This document shows, piece after piece, positions 23,264-63,628 of a stretch of 64,000 nt of DNA. Where the stretch lies: assembly GCA_024345305.1 (NCBI GenBank), contig BRON01000002.1, positions 1,240,001-1,304,000 of the forward strand, in the 5' to 3' direction. The stretch's first letter is position 1; each line of letters opens with the position of its first letter. A model generated the notes under the pieces. It saw only the letters and a list, made by a program, of their open reading frames with translations, ran no database searches and was not told the origin of the DNA. This DNA is from Mrakia gelida. Its lineage: Eukaryota; Basidiomycota; Tremellomycetes; Cystofilobasidiales; Mrakiaceae. The position numbers were made by a program, and so were the translations under genes.

Positions 23264-25634
23264 TCACTCCTCCCCCTTCCTCTTCCTGCGCTCCCTCTCC
23301 TTCTCCAAACACTTCCCCACCTCAAATAACACCCCTTCCCCACCCCAGAACCCGACCATTCCCACCCCGACCGGCCAGCCATCCTCTCCTTCCCCAGCAG
23401 GCAAGCTCATCGCTGGCATCCCCGTCAAACTCGCCGGGACCGTCAACAGATCCTGAACGTACTCGTCCATCTCCTCCTCGGTCGAAGGACTTGTGGAAGT
23501 TGAAGAGGGGAGGAGGGAAGAAAGGAGAGGAGCTGATCGGATAGCGGAGGGGGTGAGGAGGAGGTCGACTCCCTTCGACGAGGGAGGGGTGGAGGAAGGG
23601 TGGAGGGCGGAGGCGTGTCGGAAGAGGGAGAGGTAGGATTTGGTGAGGTTTTGACGGAGAGTGAGGGAGGGGAGGTAGTAGGAGTTGTAAGCACTGCGCA
23701 AACGAGAAAGGGGGGTGAGAGTCAGTTGATGAACGAAACGCGAGGTAAAGGAGAGACGCGTCGAGTCGGGAGAGAGGGTTCGGATCGACTCGACGCGTGC
23801 TTTCGTCTTTGACGACAGGAAAGGGGGGAGAGAGAGGTCGGACTCACTCAGCGCTCAAAGCATAACTGCCCACCAGAACCCTCTTCTTCACCTCCCTTCC
23901 CATCCCTTCTCCTCTCGTCTGTTCCCAAACTCCCCTTCCGTCCCCGCCACCGACGACGGCGACCTCTCCCTCCTTCCTCTTGTCCTCACCAGCCCTGAGC
24001 CCGTACCGTATCCCATCGAACCTCGCAAGGTTACTGCATGCTTCGGCTGAGGCGATGATGTAGTAGGCTGAGAGAGCGTGTTTCGCGAGGGGAGTCGAGA
24101 CGGAGTGGAGGGTCGCGCCGAGGTCTTGGAGGAGGGAGAGGTTTCGAGTGAGAGGTGGGAGGGAACAGGGGGAGAGTTCAGTGGGGAAGGATTCCTGGAG
24201 GGAGGGAAAACGGGTTCAGAGCGGTCAGGTTTCGCAAGAGAAAGGGAAGAAGAGGGGACAAAGGAGGACGAACAATCGGAACACCAACTCTCAGTCCGTC
24301 GAGTCGACCGTTCTTGAGATTCGGAAGCAGCTCCAGGCACTTCCTCGAGATCTCGTTGGCCTTGAGACGTGTTTCGGAAGTCGCGGAGGTGGGGTCTTTG
24401 GGATCGGGTAGGGAAAGAACGTCTAGAAGGCGAGAAGAAAGTGAAGTGAGCGGTCTGCTTCATTTCGCTGCCCTCGAGTCGAAACGTTGGAAACGAACGA
24501 ACCGAATACACGCTCAACCGAAGATACATCTCGAGCCATGACTCCTACCGTATCGAGCGTGTCGGCGTAGGAAATCAGACCCCATCTGGATCAAAACGAC
24601 GCGTCGAAGAAGGAGAACGAACGAGTTAGCTCAGGCGCGAGTTCCAGAGGAGCGAAGAACGAAACGAACCTCGATATCAGCCCATACGAAGGTTTCAGTC
24701 CTACAATCCCACAATACGAAGCAGGAAGTCTCGTCGATCCTCCCGTATCGGTTCCCAAAGCCCTACGAAACGAACGCAAGACTCGTCAGCGACACTCCCT
24801 CCCTCCACACTTCAAAAGCTGCAGACAGATCTGTACTCACGCCCAAGCCATCCCGCCAGCCACAGCAGCTGCACTACCTCCACTACTTCCACCACAACTT
24901 CTCTGCTCTCGCGCTCGCCAGTCCTTGGGTTCGACGCTGGCAGCGACGAAAGGGTTGATGGGCGGAGACTCGAGCGAAGCAGGGATGTGAACGTTGTGGG
25001 AACCCATCCCGAACTCGTCGCAGGATGTTTTGCCGATGAGGTAGGCTCCAGCGTTGGAGAGGAGAGTCGTTGCCGTGGAGGAGTAAGGAGGGTGGAAGTC
25101 TGCGGACGACGACGGAGAAGAAGGGAAGGGGGGAGATGGACGAGTGAGCTTGAGCGCAACGAACGAGAACGAAGATGGGGCGAGGTGGGCGAAGATCGAG
25201 ACACGAAGAGAGCTGACCTTGTAATAAGCGAGATGAAGCTGTTGTAGGTAGAGAAGGTCCAGTGGCGAAGGTGTCCTTGACGGCGATGGGGAGGGAGGAA
25301 AGAGGATGGGCTGAGCTGGGAGGAAGGGTCGACGAGGAGGGCTCTAGAGGGAGCAGAACGATAGCGACAAGCGCGAAAGGCATGTTAGTCGAAAGGTTTC
25401 AGGAATGCACATCTATTGAGCTAGGTCTCGCTCGAGTCAAGCTCAGCATCCTGGAGTTCTACGACGAAGAGAAGACTCACGATCGTTGGTCCAAACGAAA
25501 GCGTGGACTCCTCCCTCTCCTCCCTCTCGATCTCGGATGTTCTCCTTCGCTTGCTGGATCGAAGGGTAGAAGGATGTCGAGCTGGTTCTCGTCTGAATAG
25601 CAGGTCCCAAGTTGAGTCTTCTTCTTTTGAACAT
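23264..25634 (-). CDS. HER2: Mitochondrial glutamyl-tRNA(Gln) amidotransferase subunit A (GatA)
   Basis: Amidase subunit that converts Glu-tRNA(Gln) to Gln-tRNA(Gln) in mitochondria, with GatB and GatF/C. The start at 25634 ([19 protein letters not shown]) gives a basic, Ser/Thr-rich N-terminus suited to mitochondrial import. The amidase signature is complete. The catalytic Lys is in [12 protein letters not shown], the cis-Ser in [15 protein letters not shown], and the nucleophile Ser in [26 protein letters not shown] (about 24690-24780). Later blocks are [36 protein letters not shown] and a C-terminal [24 protein letters not shown], ending at 23264. Several introns separate these, and two carry GACGCGTC (23755, 24598). 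A Gly/Lys-rich insert lies before the TRGEG block. It is divergent from ARG7, another mitochondrial enzyme. Confidence 0.93.
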
Positions 25635-25800
25635 GCTTGATCGTTGGAAGTTGAGAAGGAGGAGGTGTGAGCTCGAGCTTCCTTCCTTTCCTTCGCCCGC
25701 GGCTGACTCGACTTTCTTATCTTCCTTCTTTTTGAAAGCTCGCCTTCAACCATCAAACCACATCTTTCTCCCTCCCTTCCTTCTTCATCCTCTTCCCAGG
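25635..25800. promoter_or_regulatory. Compact divergent promoter, GatA / ARG7
   Basis: Only 166 bp separate the two starts. A possible 5' UTR intron for ARG7 is visible: GTGAGC near 25667, GGCTGACTC near 25702, then a pyrimidine tract. If real, the ARG7 transcript would start very close to the GatA start. Confidence 0.45.
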
Positions 25801-27670
25801 ATGTCCTCCCTTCGACTGTCCCTCTCTCGCTCGCCTCTGCTATCCCAGCTGGCTCGTCGTTCCTACGCAACTCCTCCTCCTCCCTCCGCCGCCATCGACA
25901 AGTCCTACCTCGTCCAGTCCTACCCTCCCTCCTCCTTCCCCAAAGGCTTCTCGTGCTCTTCCCTCCACTCTGGCATCAAGAAGAACCCCCTCGCTCTGGA
26001 CATGGGTCTCTTCCACTCCTCCCACTCCTCTAGCATCCCTTGCTCGGCGGCTGGAACCTTCACCAAGAACGCTTTCAAGGCCTCCCCGGTCGACGTCTCC
26101 ATCTCCGTCCTCCAATCCACCCGAGGTCGAGCTTCAACCCTCATCGTCAACAGTGGATGCGCCAACGCCGTCACAGGTTCCAAAGGAAGGAAGGACACCG
26201 ACCAGATCGTCTCGGAAGTCAACCAACTCGTCGGAGCGTCGAAGGAGGAGGGAGGAGGCAAGACGCTCATCGTCTCAACAGGAGTGATAGGTCAACTCCT
26301 CCCTATGGACAAAGTTCTTCCTTCCCTCCCGATCCTTCATTCCACCCTCGACTCCACCCCGGAAGCCTGGCTAGGTCTCGCCAAAGCATTCATGACCACC
26401 GACACCTTCCCCAAACTTCGAACCAGAACCATCCATCTCCCCAACGCCAACGTCGACGTTCGAATCGCTGGGATCGACAAGGGAGCAGGAATGATTCATC
26501 CTCATATGGGTCCTCCCTCTGCTGCTCCCTCCTCCGCTCCTCTTCACGGGACGTTGTTGGGGTTGATCGCAACGGACGCGGCTGTCGAGCCTGAGGCGCT
26601 CCAGAAGGCCTTGACGTACGCGGTCGATAGGAGTTTCAACGCTATCAGTGTGGATGGGGATATGAGCACGAACGATACCGTCGTGGCGTTCGCGAACGGG
26701 GCAAGTGGGATGGAGAAGGAGTTGGTGGAAGGGGAGGAGGATTGGGTCGTGTTCAGGGATGGGTTGACGGAGTTTGCGGAGGAGTTGGCCAAGTTGGTGG
26801 TTCGGGATGGGGAAGGAGCGACGAAGTTTGTTACGGTTACTGTTAAGGTGAGTAATGCTTTCGTTTTCTGACGGGGTTCGTGGGTTTGGGAGGGGAAGGA
26901 AGGGAGGAGGGAGGGAGGGAAGGAAGAGACGTTTCGACGCGCGCGACGGCCTTTTCTTTTCCTCTTCGGCCGCTGACTTCGACCCGTTCTGTGCTTGTAG
27001 GGAGCTCCCTCGTACGACCAAGCCAAAGCCATCGCCTCCCAAGTCTCCACTTCCTCCCTCGTCAAGACAGCCTTCTACGGAGAAGACGCCAACTGGGGTC
27101 GAATCCTTTGTGCCATGTTCGTCCAAACGCTTTTCTCTCCCTCCTTCCTTCTCCCTCCTCTTCTCTCCTCAACTCACACACACCTCTCCCTTTCTCGTGT
27201 CCGTTTGTCTTCCACAGCGGAGGAGTCTCCTCCCCTTCGTTCCCAGTCCTCTCCCTCTCGAAACTCCGAGTCGCCTTCCTCCCCACCGACGGATCGCCCG
27301 AGCTCCTCCTCCTCCTCAAGGGAGAACCCGTCGAGTTCTCCGAGGACCGAGCGAGTGAGATTCTCGCGATGGGAGATCTGGAGGTCGTGGTGGATGTGGG
27401 AGCCGGTGAGGAGGAGGCGAAGTACTGGACTTGTGATTTCAGTCATGTGAGTTTCGAGTGACGGTCTTTCCTCGACGAGTGAGCACAGGGTTCGAGAGAG
27501 AGAGGAGATGGAGTGCTGACTTTGGAAATACTCACTCTTGCGTCATTTTCGCAGGAGTACGTGACGATCAACGGATCTGTGAGTGTTTTCGAGACCTCTT
27601 CGCGTTTCGTTCTCCTCGCATTCCGCTCGCTGACTGACGTCCTTCTTTCGCCTTTCAGTACCGATCGTAA
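25801..27670 (+). CDS. ARG7: Mitochondrial ornithine acetyltransferase (ArgJ, glutamate N-acetyltransferase)
   Basis: Transfers acetyl from N-acetylornithine to glutamate in the mitochondrial arginine cycle. The start at 25801 gives a typical presequence ([23 protein letters not shown]). Family blocks are [42 protein letters not shown], and the autocatalytic cleavage site [11 protein letters not shown], where the Thr becomes the nucleophile of the beta chain. [17 protein letters not shown] and [16 protein letters not shown] follow. Five exons; the last two introns are short and the final exon adds only YRS before TAA (27668-27670). All catalytic residues I expect are present, so the enzyme should be active. 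Confidence 0.95.
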
Positions 27671-53769: not shown

Positions 53770-54189
53770 TCGACCCTATACATCTGTTATCTTTCGAACG
53801 AGCCGTTTCTCTTTTGCTCACCCTTCTCTCGCGCCCATCCCGCAACCCCCTCCTCTCTGGCCGCACAGTTTTGCCTGCGCTCACTTGAGCTCGCCTCGAT
53901 TCTTTGGATCTTGTTCCCTTGAGGAGTGAGCCCTGATCTGCTCGGAAAGTGAAGAAAACGAGGTGGATACTGAAAACTAGAAGGGTCGAGAAAGCTTGCC
54001 TGGTCGTCAACCGCAAAAAAAGCGAGAAGAAACCTCCTCCTTCTCGCTCGCTTCCTTCCCTGCTCCCAACCCTCACTGTCTCCTTCAAGCCGCAGGTCAA
54101 CCGAATCCCTCCTTCCTTCCCTCCCTCCCTCCCCTTCTTCCCTTTCCCCCTTCCCCTCCTTCCCATCCACCTCCTCTTCTTCAAAAGGA
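53770..54189. other. Intergenic region, AIR-type gene 3' end and C2H2 gene promoter
   Basis: About 420 bp. The last 150 bp before the C2H2 start is almost pure pyrimidine with CCCT and TTCC blocks. No gene is seen. Confidence 0.4.
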
Positions 54190-56837
54190 ATGACTCAGGG
54201 TAGTCGAGCGTACGCTGGATCGATTTCGACTTCGTCGCCAGCGTTCATCGTGGATCAGTCTCTGGCTTCTCCTCTCTCTACGTCCATGTCGAGCAACCAT
54301 CAATCCTCCGAGAGATCAGGTTGGAGAGAGGAAGGAGAACAGGAAGAGGAAGAGCTCCTTCAACAGGAGGAGGAGCAGCAGCAACTCATTCAACAGGATC
54401 TAGAGCAGGAGCAGGAAGGGGGAGAGGAGGAGGGAGGGGAGCTTCCTTTGGAGGAGGAAGGACGAGAAGGGGAGGAAGAAGTCGAGGGCGAGTGGATCGA
54501 AGGAGGGGAGGAAGAAGGAGATCAACTCGAACAACAACTCGAAGGAGATCAAGATCAAGGAGGTTGGGACGAGGAAGAACAACAACAAGATCATCAACTC
54601 GAAGAAGAACAACAACTCGACGAGGAAGGGAACCCCATTCAACTCGAGGAGGAGCAGGACCAGCTCGACCAAGACGGAGCTCAAGATCAACTCGACGACC
54701 CTCACGCTTCTCACCACCCTTCACCTTCCTCCCTCCTTCATCAACAAGAACACTACACTCCAGCAGAAGGGGAAGAAGAAGAACAGGATCCATCCGCCTA
54801 CTCCATCCCTCCTCAACCTTCCTACCACTCCATCCCAGCCGCGAACCAAGCCTCCTCCTCCTCCAACGGAGCTTACGCTCAATACTCCAACCAGCCCTCC
54901 CCAGCAGCTGCCGCAACCTACTACACCTCCCCTCACCCTCATCAAACTCCCCACTACCCTCAGACCTACGACTCCCCCTCGTCCAACAACGGCAACGGAG
55001 CGGGAGGTTCAGCAGGGCAGGCTTCCCAGCACGCCTCGCCCTACGCCGGAGGAGGAGCTTCGACTTCAGCCAACTCGTCTTCCTACCAAGCCTACCCTTC
55101 CTCCTCCTCAACCTCAGGTCAAGCTCAGTACGGAGCAGCAGCCTCGAACGCCAACTCCGCCTACGCCTACGTCCCTCAGCAGCAGCAGCAGCAGTCGAGC
55201 CAGTACACCTACCGACCCTCGCCCCCCTCCCTCCCTGCCCATCTCCAACATCAACTCCAAAGCGGAGGTCTCCCCGTCCTCGGAGCCGTCACCAGCGCTT
55301 CTCGAACGGGAGTCGAGTCCGAGCACTCCTACGATCAAGGAGAGGAGGTCGTCGCTCCCGAGGGTGGTGAAGGAGGAGGAGGAGGAAGGAAGCGACGAAG
55401 AACCGAGTACGGAGATGGCGAGGGAGGAGGAGTCGTCTACGACGAGCAAGCAGGTTCGGACGGCGAGCTTCGAGTCGAAGGCGAAGGAGACGAGGAAGAG
55501 GAGGAAGAGGACGACGGAGAGGATGGGAACTACGACGATGGGAATGGCTCGTCCAAGAAGAAGAGGAAGCAGCAACAGCAACAACAACACCAGCAGCAAC
55601 AACAGCACTCCTCGCTGATGGCGACTCATCCTCTCACCCACCTCAACAACCTCGCTCATCAACACAACCTCCAGCAGCACCAGCACCAACAGCAGCTCGA
55701 CCAACAGCAGCAGCAGCAGCAGCAGCAGAACATCAACGTCAACAACCCTCTGAACCAGCTCGATCTCGCCGGGTTGGGAGCAGGGATCTTGGACGGGATG
55801 ATTGGAGGGATTGGGAGTTACGGACACCCGTTGAACACTGGGCCTTCGGGTGCTGGGCAGAACAACAGGGACAGGGCGGCGGCTATGGCGGTTGGGAGTA
55901 GGGGACAGGGGGAGAAGAAACATATTTGTCCGGAGTGCAGTAGGGGGTTCGCGAGAGCTTATAATTTGAAGGTGAGTCTGAGGGAAGGACGCGCGCGAGA
56001 CAGAACGAGAACGAGAAAGCTGACCTTTGTGTTCGTTTTACCCTTGCCTTCCTTCCCTCTTCTCGTCTGATTCGACTTCTGTTCGATCGCCCGAAGGTGA
56101 GTTTTTTGTGTTCCGAGAAGCGAGCGAGGCGACGGTGAAGTGAAGAAGCGTTCGAGCTGACCTTTTCTCGCGTTCCCTTTTCTTCCTCCCTCCTCCCTCC
56201 CACCACCCTCCACCCACCACCACCCACCCACCCCTCCTCCCTCCCCCGCCCGCCCGCCCACCCTCCAGACCCACATCCAAACCCACTCCCCCGACCCTCC
56301 CAAACCCCACGTCTGCCCTCACGACTCCTGCGGCCACAAAGCCTTCTCTCGCTCGCACGATCTCATGCGACACAAGGGATCCGTCCACGGCGAAGGGCTC
56401 GGTCAAGCCAAGCAGTCCAACGCTCCTCGAAAGAAACGAACGCCCAAGAAGCAGCTTAAAGCGCAGGAGATGGAGGCTGTCAGGACGGTCGGGGTGATCA
56501 TGGGTGCTGGGGGGATGGGAGGGATGGAGCATGATCCGCATGGGTTGGGAGGAGTTCATGGAGGGTTCGATGGGATGGGAGGGGTGGATGGGTTGGGTGG
56601 GGGGTACAGTTTGGATTTGGGAGTTGGAGGGGAGATGGGTGGGGATGGGGGACTTGGAGGTGGGCCAGAGGGTCCGTTTGGGGAGTTTGATAAGTGAGTT
56701 TTCGAGACGCGTCGAGTTCGTTCGAGACCTCCGATGCCCTCGAACCGGTACTGACTTCCTCTCTCTTTTGCTCTACTACCCTCAGCCAACCTCTCGACAA
56801 CTCCTACGGACAGGAAGACCCGCACGGGAATCCTTAG
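54190..56837 (+). CDS. C2H2 zinc-finger transcription factor with Q-rich acidic activation region
   Basis: The first exon (54190-55971) encodes a long acidic Glu/Gln region (54310-54700) and Ser/Tyr/Ala/Gln-rich stretches. Pure poly-Gln blocks follow (about 55175-55195, 55570-55610 and 55705-55728), and a basic patch (KKKRKQ) may be a nuclear signal. The DNA-binding part is two fingers. HICPECSRGFARAYNLK is split by the intron 55972-56268 from THIQTH, and HVCPHDSCGHKAFSRSHDLMRHKGSVH follows. A basic PRKKRTPKKQ segment and a Gly/Met/Asp-rich tail complete it. The last exon ends PHGNP with TAG at 56835-56837. The finger pair resembles Crz1-like calcineurin-responsive factors in the FARAYNLK block, but target genes cannot be inferred. 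The first intron has an unusual internal AG|GTGAGT. Confidence 0.83.
55705..55730. repeat. CAG repeat, poly-glutamine
   Basis: Near-perfect CAG triplets encode a glutamine run in the C2H2 factor. Other CAG/CAA runs lie at about 55175-55195 and 55570-55606. Confidence 0.7.
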
Positions 56838-57600: not shown

Positions 57601-60424
57601 CTACAGCAAATCCGACAACTTCGAAGCGATCCCCAACGAGACCGGTACGTTCTCCCCCGCGTACCTCTGCAGATCCTCCTCGTCTCCCGGTCTGGTGAAC
57701 TTGATCCTGTTCTTCTCATGCTCGACGACCGCCTTCCTCTTCCTCCTCAACGTCTCGATATCGTCCTTCTTGAACCCCACGGGAGGGTGCATCTTGAACG
57801 CCTCCTGAGCGGTGACTGTCTTCAGTGGCAATCCTCCTGCCTCCTGGGCTGCTTTCTTGTCCTCTGCCTGCTGATGCTTCCGTTGGCGAAGGACGGCGTT
57901 CTGGTTGGAGAGCTTGTCGAGGACGAACTGGAGGCAGGTTTCGATCGTTTCCTTGAGCTCTCGGGCTTCGGTGGGTTTGTTGAAGGAGAGAGGGATTCGG
58001 AAGGAGAGCCAGAGGTAGAGGGTTCCGAGTTGATGAGCGGTTTCGAGTCGTTCGAGGTCGGTGGGGTTGACGTAGGATGGTCGGGATTTGGGGAAGGAGG
58101 GTAGAGAGGGTCGTGGTGGAGGGGGAGGGATAGATGGTGGGTTTTTCGACGACGACGATTTGCTGGCCAGTAGGAGATCCGCCTCGCGCATCCTCAACGC
58201 GTCCTCTCTCGTCGCGTCCTTCTCCATCCAGGCGACTCGCTTGATGGTGTCGAGGATCCCAGCCTCTCGAAGGCACGCTTCGAAGTCGATGGCTTGTCCT
58301 CGGAGATGATCCGAGATGAACTTTCCTAGACGAGCCACGACGACGGGGTTGTTGGTGTTGGCCGGCGCGTTGCAGAAGAGCATCTTCTCGTCGAGGGTGA
58401 GACCGGCTCCGTGCTGTTCGACGAGTTTGGAGATCTCGATCGAGCCCTTGGGATCCTGCATGATGTAGTTGGTTCCGGTTCGAGCGAGCTTGTTGAGCGA
58501 TCCGAGGACGAAGTCGAGAGGAGTTCCCGCTCCGAAGACTCCGAGGACGCGAGCGACATCTTCGACGTGGTAGTTGAGACGAGCTCGAGGGATGATGGGG
58601 ATGGCTGCCTCATAGATGCCTCGGAGGGTCTCGAGGTCGTCGGGTTCCATCGTGGTAGCCTCTCCTTGGATTCCTGTTCCGTGAAGACCGAAACGACCAG
58701 CTCGTCCTGCGATTTGCTTGACTTGAGAGACCCGAAGAGCGACGTTCTCCTTTCCGTTGAACTTGGTGAGACCCCAGAAGATGATTCGACGGATCGTGCT
58801 GGAGTACGGAAGCGGAAAGGAGTCAGTTGGGCGTGAAGATAACGAGGATGGGAAGGTCGAAAGAGAGGAAGAAGGGAACGTAGCCAACTCACAGGTTCAG
58901 TCCCATTCCGACCGCATCACTCGCCACCATCACGTCGACTCCACTTTTCGGGTCGTTGAAGAGAGCTGCCTGCTGAGCTCGAAGCTCCGGTGGGAGAGCT
59001 CCGTACGCGACGGCGCATTGCAGTCCAGTCGCGTCCTCGATCGACTTCTTGATCTCGTAGATTCCGTTTCGAGAGAGGCGAACGACGCAGTCTCCTGGTC
59101 GAATGTTGGACCATCCTCCTAGACTCTCGGACGAGATCGACATCGGCGAGAGTCGTTGGTACCGATGAACGACGAGGTCGTCTCCAATCTCCTCCGCGAT
59201 CCTCGAGATCAAGTCGACGACGGTCTCCTCTCCGCAAAGATGAACCTCCTTCGCACAGCAGTTAAGCAGGCAAGAAGTCCACCCAGCTCCTCGATCCGGG
59301 TCTCCGATCATCTGGATCTCGTCGAAGACGGCGACGTCGTGCTCCTTCTCCGAGAGAGCGGTCATCTCGACGGTGAGAGATTCGAGTCCAGCTGCTCGGT
59401 CGACGATTCGGACCTCCTCCCCTGTAACGAGGTTGCAAGCTCGACCGACTCCGTCCATGCCTGCGATGGCTCCTCGGTTGATTCGTTCCCAGACCTCGTG
59501 AGCGAGAAGACGAAGGGGACCAGCGTAGAGACCTCGGTTGGCCTTGACGAGAGCTTTGAGAGCGTTGTAGGTCTTTCCTGAGTTCGTTGGACCGACGTGG
59601 AGGTGGATCGTCCTCTTGAGCGTTCGAGCTGTCGAAGCGGGGTACCTGAACGCTGGGAATCGAAAGTCGGTCGCAGCGGCGAGTCGAGCCAGCTTGTAGA
59701 GGGAAGCGACGGTGGGCGGCTGATCCTCCTTCGTTCGAGTGTTCGGGTGGTCGACGACCGTTCGACGTCGTTCTTCGAGAGCTTCGGGAGCCCATTCCAG
59801 AAGACGATGGAGGATGCAGATCTCCGTCGCTGCCTTCCACGATCCTCCTCGAGCGTCCTCCGCGACTGCTTCGAAGTCGAGCCTGAGCGACGCGATGTCC
59901 CACTTCCTCTCCCACGAAGAGTCCTCCCCGTTCGAGAGTTCCTCGGATGCGAACTCGAGGAATGCCTTCGCGATCCGACGGGAGTCCGCTCCCATCTGAA
60001 GTCCATTCAAGGTTCCTTCGAGACCAGATTCGGGGACGTCGTGCCTTCGAAGGCTGTCGAGGAGAAGGGCTCGGATGCTCTCCTCGTCGGCGAGAGGTCG
60101 AGAAACGATCTCGGTCTTGGCCATTTTCAGTCGACGTTTCGGAGGAGGTTTGTTGTAGTCGTCGAAGGAAGGACCGGGGTTCTCCTCAACAGGTTCGACG
60201 AGGTCTGGAGGAAGATCGAGAGCCGACGCGTTGGGATCGAGCTCCAGCTCGACTTTTCCTGATGGCGAGGAGTGAAGAGCTCGAGCCTGAGGGCGGTGAG
60301 ATTGGGTGGAGGATGAGGAGGAGAGGAGAGAGGATCGAGTGGAGAGAGGGTTGGAGGAGGTTGGACGAGGGGATGAGTTGGATTTGGACGACGAGGGAGA
60401 GGATTGCTTCAAGATCGCGTTCAT
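57601..60424 (-). CDS. SUV3: SUV3 half, possible separate product from internal start
   Basis: Alternative reading of the same frame, starting at the internal ATG 60424. It would begin [20 protein letters not shown] and continue Ser/Arg-rich, with no acidic residue, for about 55 residues to [10 protein letters not shown]. That is a textbook mitochondrial presequence with an R-A-L-H/S-S type processing site. The helicase body follows: an N-terminal helical domain, GPTNSGKT (Walker A), DEIQ (Walker B), QIAGRAGR (motif VI) and the SUV3 C-terminal region ([19 protein letters not shown]). One intron lies at about 58800-58892. Whether this is an independent start or a processed half of the fusion cannot be decided from DNA alone. 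Confidence 0.45.
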
Positions 60425-63400
60425 GACGAGGAGGAGGGAGATGGGAGTCATTCCTTGGATCCTCTTCGCGACACCCTGTGGCAAGAGAAAACAGCTCGTC
60501 AGCGAAGAAGCTCAAAAGAGAGGAGTCGAGCTTCGTGAACTCACCAAAGACCTAGGCTGATCTCGAACAAAGAGAGCTCGAGCTTCGTCCGAAAGACCTG
60601 AGATGGACGAGAAGTCGGTGTTGGCTGGGATCAAGAACTCTTCTTCGCTGTTGAAGGCGTCGATCTCGGCGTTCTGTCGAGCGTCGATGTGCTCGTAGGT
60701 TCCTGGAGGAAGAGAAAAACTGGGCGTCAACACACCTGCTCCACGCTGATTCGAAGCTCGCGTCCAAACTCACTCTGGAACGATAAACGCTCGAGGACGT
60801 TGGCGTCAAATCGTTCGAGCCCAGGAACGAGAGGTGTCAGCGACGTGAGGAGGTCTTTCTGAACCAGGAGATCCCAGGCGCTGTTGAGATATAGACCCGA
60901 AACTGAGTCAGAGCAAGGTCGAGGCGATAAGGACGAAGAAGGGTTCGAGAGACTCACGATTTGGGCTCAGTGCTCCTCGAAACGAAGTTCTCGAGTCCTT
61001 GGTCGACCCAGCGAGCGGCGGTTTGCTTCTTCGCCTGCATCAACGATCTCCCGAGGTCCATATCGGAACGAGTCGATTCGAAGGTGGCCCATCGTTCGGG
61101 CGAGATGATTCCGTGGGAGTGACCTGGAGGGATCGAAGAGTCGAGCGTCAGTCGAACGAGACGTCGACAGAAGAGAGGACGAGATCTCCTTACCCTTCGT
61201 TGTCAGCCTCAGATCAGCGTTATCGGCTCGCTGAGAAATTCTGAACTCCGATCTCGAGGTAAAGACTCGGTCTGCGAAATGGCAAGAGAGATCAGCGAGA
61301 GTTCATCGAGGAGAGAAGCTGAACGAGACAAGTTCGCTCACAAGGTTCTTCCGCTCCCTTCATAGTCAGGTCGTCGATCATGACTCCGATGTATCCATCC
61401 GATCGCTTGATGATCATCTGGGGTTTGCCTGAGAGGATCGAAAGAGACGACGTCAGTCGCAGGCGACAGGGGGACGCGTCTCAAGCTTTCGAGGACGAAC
61501 CGAGAGCAGCCAACCCAGCGTTCACTCCAGCGACGATCCCTTGACCAGCAGCCTCCTCGTATCCAGTCGTTCCGTTGATTTGACCAGCGAGGAAGAGTCC
61601 CTGAGAAGAAAGAAAAGCGTCAGCATCGCTCTCGAGGACGTCAGAGGAGGAAGACGCGACTGACCTGAACTCGTTTCGTCTCGAGGGTCGCTAGAAGTGT
61701 GAAGATGGTCAGCGAAGTATATTGGGACTACGAGGGTATCAATACTTACTTTTGAGCTCCCTGGGGTCCACGAAGTCGTACTGGAAGAGGAGAGAGAAGA
61801 GTCAGCTCTCGCGACGAACGAAAGAAGAAGCGACAAGAGGGTTCTCACCTCGACTCCGTATCCTGGTCGAACCATCGTAACCTCCTCCAAACCCTTGATC
61901 GATCTCATCACTCGTTCCTGGACCTCGGCTGGGAGAGTGACCGACATGCCTGAAGGATAGACGAGATCTGAGAAGGGAAGACGCGTCAGGCGTCGAGGTT
62001 AAATGAGGGGGAAGGGATGATGAGCTGAGCTAACCGGTATCCGTTCCTTCCGGTTCTAGCCAGACACGGTGAGAAGTAAGATGTGGATGCTTGATGACCT
62101 TGGACTCGATCGATGGACAGTAGCGAGGTCCTGGATGGACGAAAACGCGAGAAGAGATCAGAAACGAACGAACTCGGAGGAAGACAAAGAACGAACCTTT
62201 GACCGTCTCTCTGATGTGAACCGACAGGTGGAGGTTCTCCTTGACGATCCTGTTGGTCTCGGGATTCGTCTCGGTGAGGAAGCAGGGGATTTGATGGTCC
62301 TGGACGAAGAGAAAGACGCGTGAGCAAGACGCGCGTGGTCGAGATTCGAAGATCAGGAGAGAGGCTCACGAGGTTGGCACCTGCCGCTCTGAGAGCTCCT
62401 TCAGCCTCGTGCAGGTAGCTGAAAGGACGACTGTTGACTCCGTTGGGTACCTGCTCCTGAAGACCGTCGTAGTTGATGGTTCGGCCGTCGAGGCGAGGAG
62501 GGGTTCCGGTCTTGAGGCGACCGAGAGCGAAATCGAGGGAACGAAGGGATTGTGAAAGAGAGGGAGAGGATGGTGGCTCCTCATGACGACCAGCTGCGTG
62601 CGTGTCGAGTCCGAGATGGATCCTGGGAAGAGAGGATGAGGAAGGGAAGGTGAGCTGGGCGCGTCTGCGTCGAGGCTGAGCGACGAAGTGGAGCGGGTGG
62701 ACTCACTCTCCACCGAGGAACGTTCCAGTACATATCACCACCTGAGAAGACTTGATAGACTCTCCAGACTCTGCAAGAAGATATCCAGATCGAGATCAGC
62801 GACTCGATCTCTCCTCAACAGCGACTCGAAGTCGAACTATCGAACTCACCTAACCTCACTCCCTCCACCTTCCAGCCATCAGGACCTTGAGCCCAAAGCA
62901 GGTTGCTGACCGATCCAGCTTGGATCTCCAAGTTCTCGACCTTCGAAAGAGCCTCCTGCATGTTCTTCTTGTAGTCCTTCCTCGACATCTGAGCTCGATG
63001 TCCCCAACCTGCTGGACCTCGAGAGCCGTTGAGAAGGTGGAACGAGATCGCAGATTTGTCTGAGGAAGAACGAATCAGTGGAGAGATATGGTCAGTACAT
63101 TTGCTTCAGCTCGAGATAGCTTGGGATCTGGTTCGACGAGCTCGAAGGTAGGGAAGGAAGAGCAGACGAGCTCGAGCTCACTCTCCCTCTTCCTTCCTTT
63201 GAGCTCGCTCGTTCCACACAACCTTCGCCCGACTAGCGACGATCAAGAAGCAAGATCTACTCACCTCCTACTACTCCCATCAGACCTCCCAGAGCATCAA
63301 CCTCCCTGACCAAGCTTCCCTTCCCGATCCCACCTAGACTCGGGTTGCAGCTCATTTCTCCCACGGTGTCGAGTCGTTGAGTCAAGAGGATCGTCTTCGC

Positions 63401-63628
63401 TCCAGTACGAGCAGCTCCAGAAGCAGCTTCGCAACCAGCATGGCCAGCTCCTATGACGATGACATCGCAGTGATCCGAGGAGGGGGTGGAGTAGGATCGA
63501 GGGGAGAGGGAGAAGGGAGGGGAGAAGGAGGAGGAGGAGAAGGAAGGTCGAAGGAAGGAGGGAGTCGAAACGTGGCCTAAGCGATGTCGAAGAGGATTTG
63601 ACCGAGCTGAGAGCAGGAGCGATCTCAT
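57601..63628 (-). CDS. MTO1-SUV3: Fusion of MTO1 (tRNA uridine-34 modification) and SUV3 (RNA helicase), mitochondrial
   Basis: The start at 63628 gives a presequence ending RSYSTPSS. The MTO1/GidA half then has the FAD site [20 protein letters not shown], the family signature [72 protein letters not shown] and [11 protein letters not shown]. Its C-terminal helices are [20 protein letters not shown] and [23 protein letters not shown] canonical 69-nt phase-0 intron (60476-60544) joins those two pieces. The same exon then runs on, with no stop, through a basic Ser-rich linker into the SUV3 helicase: [48 protein letters not shown] and [13 protein letters not shown]. The stop is at 57601. MTO1 with MSS1 installs the xm5U34 modification; Suv3 is the degradosome helicase. 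Both halves look full length and active. Confidence 0.88.

What the first reader, a model, noticed from the sequence alone, without database searches (positions are those of the whole stretch)
57601..63628. MTO1 and SUV3 encoded as one continuous reading frame
The C-terminus of MTO1 ([17 protein letters not shown]) and the whole of SUV3 share one exon with no stop between them. The upstream MTO1 exon joins by a canonical phase-0 intron (60476-60544, GTGAGT donor, GCTGAC branch, CACAG acceptor), and the join restores the expected GidA-type sequence. From established knowledge, MTO1 modifies wobble U34 of mitochondrial tRNAs and Suv3 unwinds mitochondrial RNA for decay. I know of no described protein joining the two. 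The fusion could fix their ratio, co-localise tRNA modification with RNA turnover, or be a polyprotein cut after import.
Basis: partly seen in the sequence, partly recalled or inferred. Interest (0 to 1): 0.9.

Follow-up and report, generated by a model that had tools for sequence, protein, structure and literature searches.

The report
Two mitochondrial RNA enzymes, one gene
In a yeast related to Mrakia, one gene encodes two different mitochondrial RNA enzymes (the tRNA modifier MTO1 and the RNA helicase SUV3) as one long protein, which is probably cut in two inside the mitochondrion; a related yeast, Phaffia, has the same joined protein.

Summary
On the minus strand, 63628-57601, a 17-exon model gives one 1580-residue frame: MTO1 (GidA/MnmG), then SUV3, no stop between. 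One locus was found for each family in the genome. Among the 120 listed of 1125 protein hits, one other fusion appears: Phaffia rhodozyma, 1505 aa, 53% identical over the searched region, sister to the window in both halves. An assembly or model error is therefore unlikely. One gene places the window near Mrakia (Tremellomycetes), not Pucciniomycotina. The joint looks like SUV3's own presequence region: 116 and 107 residues against a median of 113 in 86 other SUV3. It and the N-terminus are the two most presequence-like stretches in both fusions, and an R-x-L/F-x-S/T pattern sits at residue 719 of each. Best explanation: a tandem precursor cut by the mitochondrial processing peptidase, as shown for Arg5,6 (review passage). 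Cleavage is inferred. One oddity: the joint holds VEENPGP, a 2A ribosome-skipping core, the genome's only VExNPGP match. It lacks the usual Asp and is absent from Phaffia. Known kind, new pair.

The parts
57601..63628 (-). MTO1-SUV3 fusion gene, ATG to stop, 17 exons, 1580 codons
   Evidence: splice model and translation; Pfam domains
60404..63628 (-). MTO1 half, residues 1-678: presequence, GIDA, GIDA_C_1st, SAM_GIDA_C and last helix
60476..60544 (-). last MTO1 intron, phase 0, 69 nt
   Evidence: the only donor over the score threshold between 60640 and 59990
58893..60475 (-). junction exon: MTO1 C-terminus, SUV3 presequence region and part of the SUV3 helicase in one exon
60422..60424 (-). 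Met672, in-frame Met nearest before the SUV3-type presequence; Met663 (60451) is another; the next after it is Met772 (60124)
   Evidence: Met at the Met672 column in 16 of 120 MTO1 without SUV3
60254..60424 (-). internal presequence-like segment, residues 672-728: 7 R/K, 0 D/E, 22 S
60266..60283 (-). RALHSS, residues 719-724, candidate internal processing site; Phaffia has RAFSTS at 719
60170..60190 (-). VEENPGP, residues 750-756, 2A-like core with Pro where Asp is usual
   Evidence: single VExNPGP match in the genome
57601..60085 (-). SUV3 core, residues 785-1580 and stop, one intron at 58892-58799

Best explanation
This is a tandem mitochondrial precursor. One mRNA is translated into one polypeptide with two presequences, one at the N-terminus before MTO1 and one in the middle before SUV3. 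The precursor is imported into the matrix, where the mitochondrial processing peptidase (MPP, perhaps with Icp55 trimming) removes the first presequence and cuts again near residue 721, releasing MTO1 with a short tail and SUV3. The fusion arose once, before Mrakia and Phaffia split, when the MTO1 stop was lost and the frame ran straight into SUV3. Shown here: the single frame, conserved domains, one locus found for each, the Phaffia counterpart, the presequence-like joint and the shared pattern. Inferred: one mRNA, import, cleavage, the single origin.
For: One open spliced frame with both enzymes. One locus each for GIDA and DEXQc_Suv3 was found in the genome, so no second copy is known that could supply either enzyme. 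Same fusion in Phaffia, which forms a two-member clade with the window in both half-trees at support 1.0. Met672 to the IRALLLD column of the SUV3 core is 116 residues (window) and 107 (Phaffia); 86 other SUV3 have a median of 113 (range 1-271; the 33 of 119 with 960 aa or more were left out), three Kwoniella 113-116. In a presequence classifier (279 positives, 1116 negatives, cross-validated AUC 0.967) the two best windows in each fusion are the N-terminus and the joint. R-x-[FYL]-[ASTHG]-[ST] occurs at 719 in both; it is in residues 11-80 of 29 of 119 SUV3 and 74 of 120 MTO1, against 5 of 119 and 15 of 120 random internal windows. The joint is modelled with low confidence, as a disordered stretch would be. 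Internal MPP cutting is reported for Arg5,6 (passages).
Against: No RNA or protein data. The site pattern also occurs at 486 (window) and 484 (Phaffia) inside the MTO1 body, is missing from the Phaffia N-terminus, and is absent from residues 11-80 of 90 of 119 SUV3. Two other internal stretches of the window score high in the classifier (906, 0.974; 1382, 0.967). Keeping a SUV3 presequence is equally expected if SUV3 has its own transcript starting near Met672. Mrakia frigida proteins are in the database (ArgJ), yet no M. frigida name is among the 120 hits listed or.
Confidence: 0.62

Rival explanations
1. SUV3 is also, or mainly, made from its own transcript starting inside the last MTO1 exons and translated from Met672 or Met663; the long fusion is a by-product or supplies MTO1 only.
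For: Met672 gives SUV3 an N-terminal region of normal length; the ATG has G at -3.
Against: MTO1 still has no stop of its own, and no cryptic donor over the threshold lies in 60640-59990 (matrix from the gene's own 16 introns). Met at this column is found in 16 of 120 MTO1 without SUV3, so it needs no special reason. Upstream is coding sequence and short introns; promoters were not scanned for.
Confidence: 0.17
2. The protein stays uncut and works as a bifunctional enzyme coupling tRNA modification with RNA turnover.
For: Conserved domains on both sides; the joint looks flexible.
Against: A SUV3-type presequence region with a processing-type pattern was kept in both species. In bacterial homologues the MnmG C-terminal region contacts the partner MnmE (recalled, no call).
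Confidence: 0.12
3. Ribosome skipping at NPG|P in the joint releases MTO1 with the SUV3 presequence, and SUV3 without it.
For: VEENPGP is in frame in the joint and is the only VExNPGP-coding match in 34.86 Mb, both strands. ExNPGP-coding matches number 13; of the 8 examined, this one lies in the longest open frame (540 aa; the others 23-227).
Against: Asp is replaced by Pro; a paper on a duck virus cites FMDV work in which changing Asp abolished activity, though a natural Gly works there and Ala only weakens it (passages). The stretch before it is proline-rich. Phaffia lacks it. The 13 ExNPGP matches are hardly more than the reversed control (11). Skipping would strip SUV3 of its presequence.
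Confidence: 0.05
4. Assembly or gene-model error.
For: No reads were available.
Against: A Phaffia protein from another genome has the same fusion. A published Phaffia annotation, presumably its source though I did not verify the link, used RNA-seq (passages).
Confidence: 0.02

Closest known systems
Tandem mitochondrial precursors (Arg5,6 of S. cerevisiae, MPP cutting demonstrated; Atp25, Etp1, Rsm22-Cox11, SPAC22A12.08c and rice RPS14, internal signals and sites found in silico; review passage)
   Same: Two mitochondrial proteins in one frame, presequence at the start, presequence-like stretch with a processing-type pattern between them
   Different: Different enzyme pair; cleavage not tested here
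Phaffia rhodozyma protein P0001 (deposited as NAD/FAD-utilizing protein possibly involved in translation)
   Same: Same domain order, 53% identity over the searched region, 1505 aa
   Different: N-terminal region of the SUV3 half 9 residues shorter; no NPGP; name fits the MTO1 half only
2A and 2A-like ribosome-skipping peptides, including dual-targeting signal 2A sequences (PMC4981915, outline with abstract seen)
   Same: VExNPGP core in frame between two proteins and next to a targeting-like sequence
   Different: Pro for Asp, proline-rich upstream stretch, not in Phaffia, activity untested

Membership tests
MTO1 / MnmG (GidA) | GIDA domain with FAD-binding GxGxxG and C-terminal helical domains | tested here: met
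   GIDA 479 bits, GIDA_C_1st, SAM_GIDA_C above cut-offs; [23 protein letters not shown] present; Phaffia counterpart over the NCBIfam MnmG cut-off
SUV3 RNA helicase | Suv3 DExQ domain, Helicase_C and SUV3_C | tested here: met
   [20 protein letters not shown] in the window; matches solved SUPV3L1 chains and one named Suv3 helicase
Tandem mitochondrial precursor | two mitochondrial proteins in one continuous coding frame | tested here: met
Tandem mitochondrial precursor | internal presequence-like stretch with processing-type site | tested here: met
   the pattern also occurs once inside MTO1, and the classifier has other high internal windows
Tandem mitochondrial precursor | internal cleavage by MPP yielding two proteins | not testable with these tools
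   needs protein work
2A ribosome-skipping peptide | D-V/I-E-x-N-P-G-P | tested here: not met
   PVEENPGP: six of the seven fixed residues, Pro for Asp
2A ribosome-skipping peptide | skipping activity | not testable with these tools
   needs a translation reporter

The most novel reading that the evidence does not exclude
The joint carries a degenerate but working 2A element: partial ribosome skipping makes a presequence-less SUV3 for cytosol or nucleus, while unskipped polyprotein goes to mitochondria. This would be a fungal housekeeping gene using a 2A-like peptide for dual targeting.
Probability: 0.05. Interest if true: 0.85.

Novelty: new member of a known kind. Interest (0 to 1): 0.5.

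Why it matters
It adds a pair of RNA enzymes to the short list of mitochondrial tandem precursors, in a clade with an industrial yeast (Phaffia) where cleavage can be tested. If both enzymes come only from this precursor, wobble-U modification and RNA turnover start from a fixed ratio of the two proteins, which makes a possible coupling of the two processes testable. It also warns that the Phaffia protein is named after one half only.

Tried and rejected
Alternative splicing giving MTO1 a stop: in 60640-59990 only the known donor 60544 passes the score threshold. The alternative acceptors listed within 300 nt of it score well below the real one (best 4.0 against 13.1) and most would lose or change the conserved C-terminal helix. 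Other cryptic acceptors over the threshold (best 60205, 60511 and 60598) were seen and not followed. The matrix was built from the gene's own 16 introns, so it is not independent.

More fusions: one search scored 7979 candidates, 1125 passed, 120 were listed; by the listed domains one of the 120 (P0001) has both halves. A viral-contig scan with the junction exon matched patterns in 11 stretches, none a relative. Gene order in relatives without the fusion could not be examined with the collections at hand.

MTO1 conserved columns: 18 of 200 are changed in the window, 11 of them identically in Phaffia (my count of the list). By their names the compared MTO1 are mostly Agaricomycetes, with Microbotryomycetes and a few Ascomycota (classes recalled), so this may reflect sampling.

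2A as the main mechanism: rejected as above. The chance of an in-frame ExNPGP in a 106-codon joint is about 2e-5 from the genome rate of 13 in both strands of 34.86 Mb (my arithmetic), but the motif was chosen after it was seen.

Structure: one model of the junction exon only, mean pLDDT 72.4, pTM 0.47, 19 sequences; no fold search was run on it.

Full report
Observation. The two genes lie on the minus strand. Reading the exons gave a 17-exon model from the ATG at 63628 to the stop at 57601, with 16 GT-AG introns (59-205 nt) and a single frame of 1580 codons. Pfam places GIDA, GIDA_C_1st and SAM_GIDA_C in residues 55-670 and the Suv3 helicase domain, Helicase_C, Suv3_C_1 and SUV3_C in 936-1476. 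In the whole genome (34,857,517 bases, 25 contigs) the six GIDA matches and the single DEXQc_Suv3 match fall in this gene; these searches go exon by exon and their counts are lower bounds. Both halves look functional: 182 of 200 MTO1 columns and 90 of 94 SUV3 columns that are the same in at least 97% of 120 MTO1 and 86 SUV3 relatives are kept.

Is it real? A stop-free joint by itself is weak: 7% of nucleotide shuffles of the 311-nt joint are also open. The answer comes from Phaffia rhodozyma. A search with residues 400-1300 found 1125 proteins at E <= 0.001 among 7979 candidates. Of the 120 listed, the first, at 951 bits, is a 1505-residue Phaffia protein covering 100% of the query at 53% identity; the next, at 403 bits, has SUV3 domains only. 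It has the same domain order and an equivalent joint, and MnmG is over its NCBIfam cut-off in residues 48-669. A published Phaffia genome used RNA-seq for its gene models (passages of PMC4393869); I did not verify that P0001 comes from it, and I have no read-level support for this gene. In trees of each half the window and Phaffia form a clade of two with support 1.0, which fits one fusion event.

Which organism? The ArgJ open frame at 25597-26871 is 91% identical to Mrakia frigida and 65% to Phaffia; an unnamed metagenome protein lies between at 80%. This is one gene, so 'near Mrakia' is as far as I go. Mrakia and Phaffia are both Mrakiaceae, Cystofilobasidiales, Tremellomycetes. Proteins with SUV3 domains only in the list include Cryptococcus, Kwoniella and Kockovaella (Tremellomycetes by recall), so the fusion looks restricted to part of the class. 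An open point: M. frigida has proteins in the database, but no M. frigida name is among the 120 hits (candidate lengths about 869-2765) or (about 400-1272). The gene may be missing or split in that annotation; I had no protein search left to look for shorter pieces.

What is the joint? From the column of Met672 to the end, 120 MTO1 without SUV3 have a median of 21 residues (range 3-57). In the fusion the last MTO1 helix (665-678; predicted) runs straight on. From Met672 to the IRALLLD column of the SUV3 core the window has 116 residues and Phaffia 107; 86 other SUV3 under 960 aa have a median of 113 (range 1-271), with Kwoniella at 113, 115 and 116, Kockovaella 113 and Cryptococcus 155. So the joint looks like SUV3's own N-terminal region, presequence included. 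Residues 672-728 hold 7 R/K, no D/E and 22 Ser. A classifier trained on N-terminal against internal windows of MTO1, SUV3 and ArgJ relatives (cross-validated AUC 0.967) ranks the true N-terminus and this joint as the two best windows in both fusions: 0.999 and 0.999 in the window, 0.988 and 0.994 in Phaffia. Other internal windows reach 0.974 and 0.967 in the window and 0.858 in Phaffia. A processing-type pattern falls at residue 719 in both (RALHS, RAFST). It also occurs at 44 in the window's N-terminus but not in Phaffia's, and in the MTO1 body at 486 and 484. Reading this pattern as an MPP/Icp55 site is recalled knowledge. AlphaFold gives pLDDT under 50 for exon residues 1-103 and 113-127, that is about 655-757 and 767-781; part of this is due to the missing MTO1 body.

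Mechanism. The simplest account is a tandem precursor imported and cut internally by MPP. A review passage (PMC8847149) reports that MPP cuts Arg5,6 of yeast internally and that internal signals and sites were found in silico in Atp25, Etp1, Rsm22-Cox11, SPAC22A12.08c and rice RPS14; a 2025 paper cites Arg5,6 in the same sense (PMC12585908 passages). The MnmE family, to which the MTO1 partner MSS1 belongs, has one locus on contig 12, and RNB-type nucleases, among which a DSS1 would fall, occupy three places (partner roles recalled). So candidates for both partners lie elsewhere in the genome. One mRNA, import and cleavage are all inferred. A separate SUV3 transcript from Met672 or Met663 cannot be excluded; MTO1, however, has no stop of its own and no cryptic donor over the threshold nearby.

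The NPGP oddity. The joint reads [16 protein letters not shown]. VExNPGP-coding sequence occurs once in the genome, here (reversed control 0), and ExNPGP 13 times (control 11). Of the 8 of 13 examined, this one lies in the longest open frame, 540 aa; the next is 227. Against a working 2A: Pro replaces Asp. A paper on a duck virus 2A (PMC6249498 passages) reports that Ala at the N, P and G before the break abolished skipping, that Ala at its natural Gly (in place of Asp) or at Glu weakened it, and cites loss of activity on changing Asp in FMDV. Phaffia lacks the motif, and 1 of 239 other proteins has an NPGP (P0087, residue 131). Skipping here would separate SUV3 from its presequence, useful only for dual targeting, as described for another 2A-like signal (PMC4981915 abstract). 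I rate it at 5%.

Literature. Searches for MTO1 with SUV3 and for Mrakia with fused genes (no papers) listed nothing that describes this fusion in a title or abstract start; a passage on zebrafish Mto1 loss mentions SUV3 as a regulator of mitochondrial polyadenylation. The library holds open-licence papers only.

Verdict. Confirmed, found in a second genus, of a known kind (mitochondrial tandem precursors) with a new pair of enzymes.

Noticed in passing
25597-26871 +: ArgJ (glutamate N-acetyltransferase) open frame, 91% identical to Mrakia frigida over 98% of the query; used to place the window.
   Followed up: yes
P0068 and P0090 (one search hits, no window place): Drechslerella stenobrocha and Orbilia brochopaga proteins carry SUV3 domains followed by a PAPS_reduct domain: perhaps a second, independent SUV3 fusion, or two gene models joined alike.
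   Followed up: partly
P0045 and P0065 (one search hits, no window place): SUV3 followed by RhoGAP (Phenoliferia) and MFS followed by SUV3 (Sporothrix) in one predicted protein; more likely joined gene models, not checked.
   Followed up: no
window 60404-63628 -: 18 of 200 conserved MTO1 columns are changed, 11 of them identically in Phaffia: possible faster evolution of MTO1 in this clade, or biased sampling.
   Followed up: partly
53974-56697 +: Long Gln/Glu-rich open frame ending in C2H2 zinc-finger-like sequence (CPECSRGFARAYNL), followed by another (CPHDSCGHKAFSRSHDLMRH): probably one transcription factor gene with introns.
   Followed up: no
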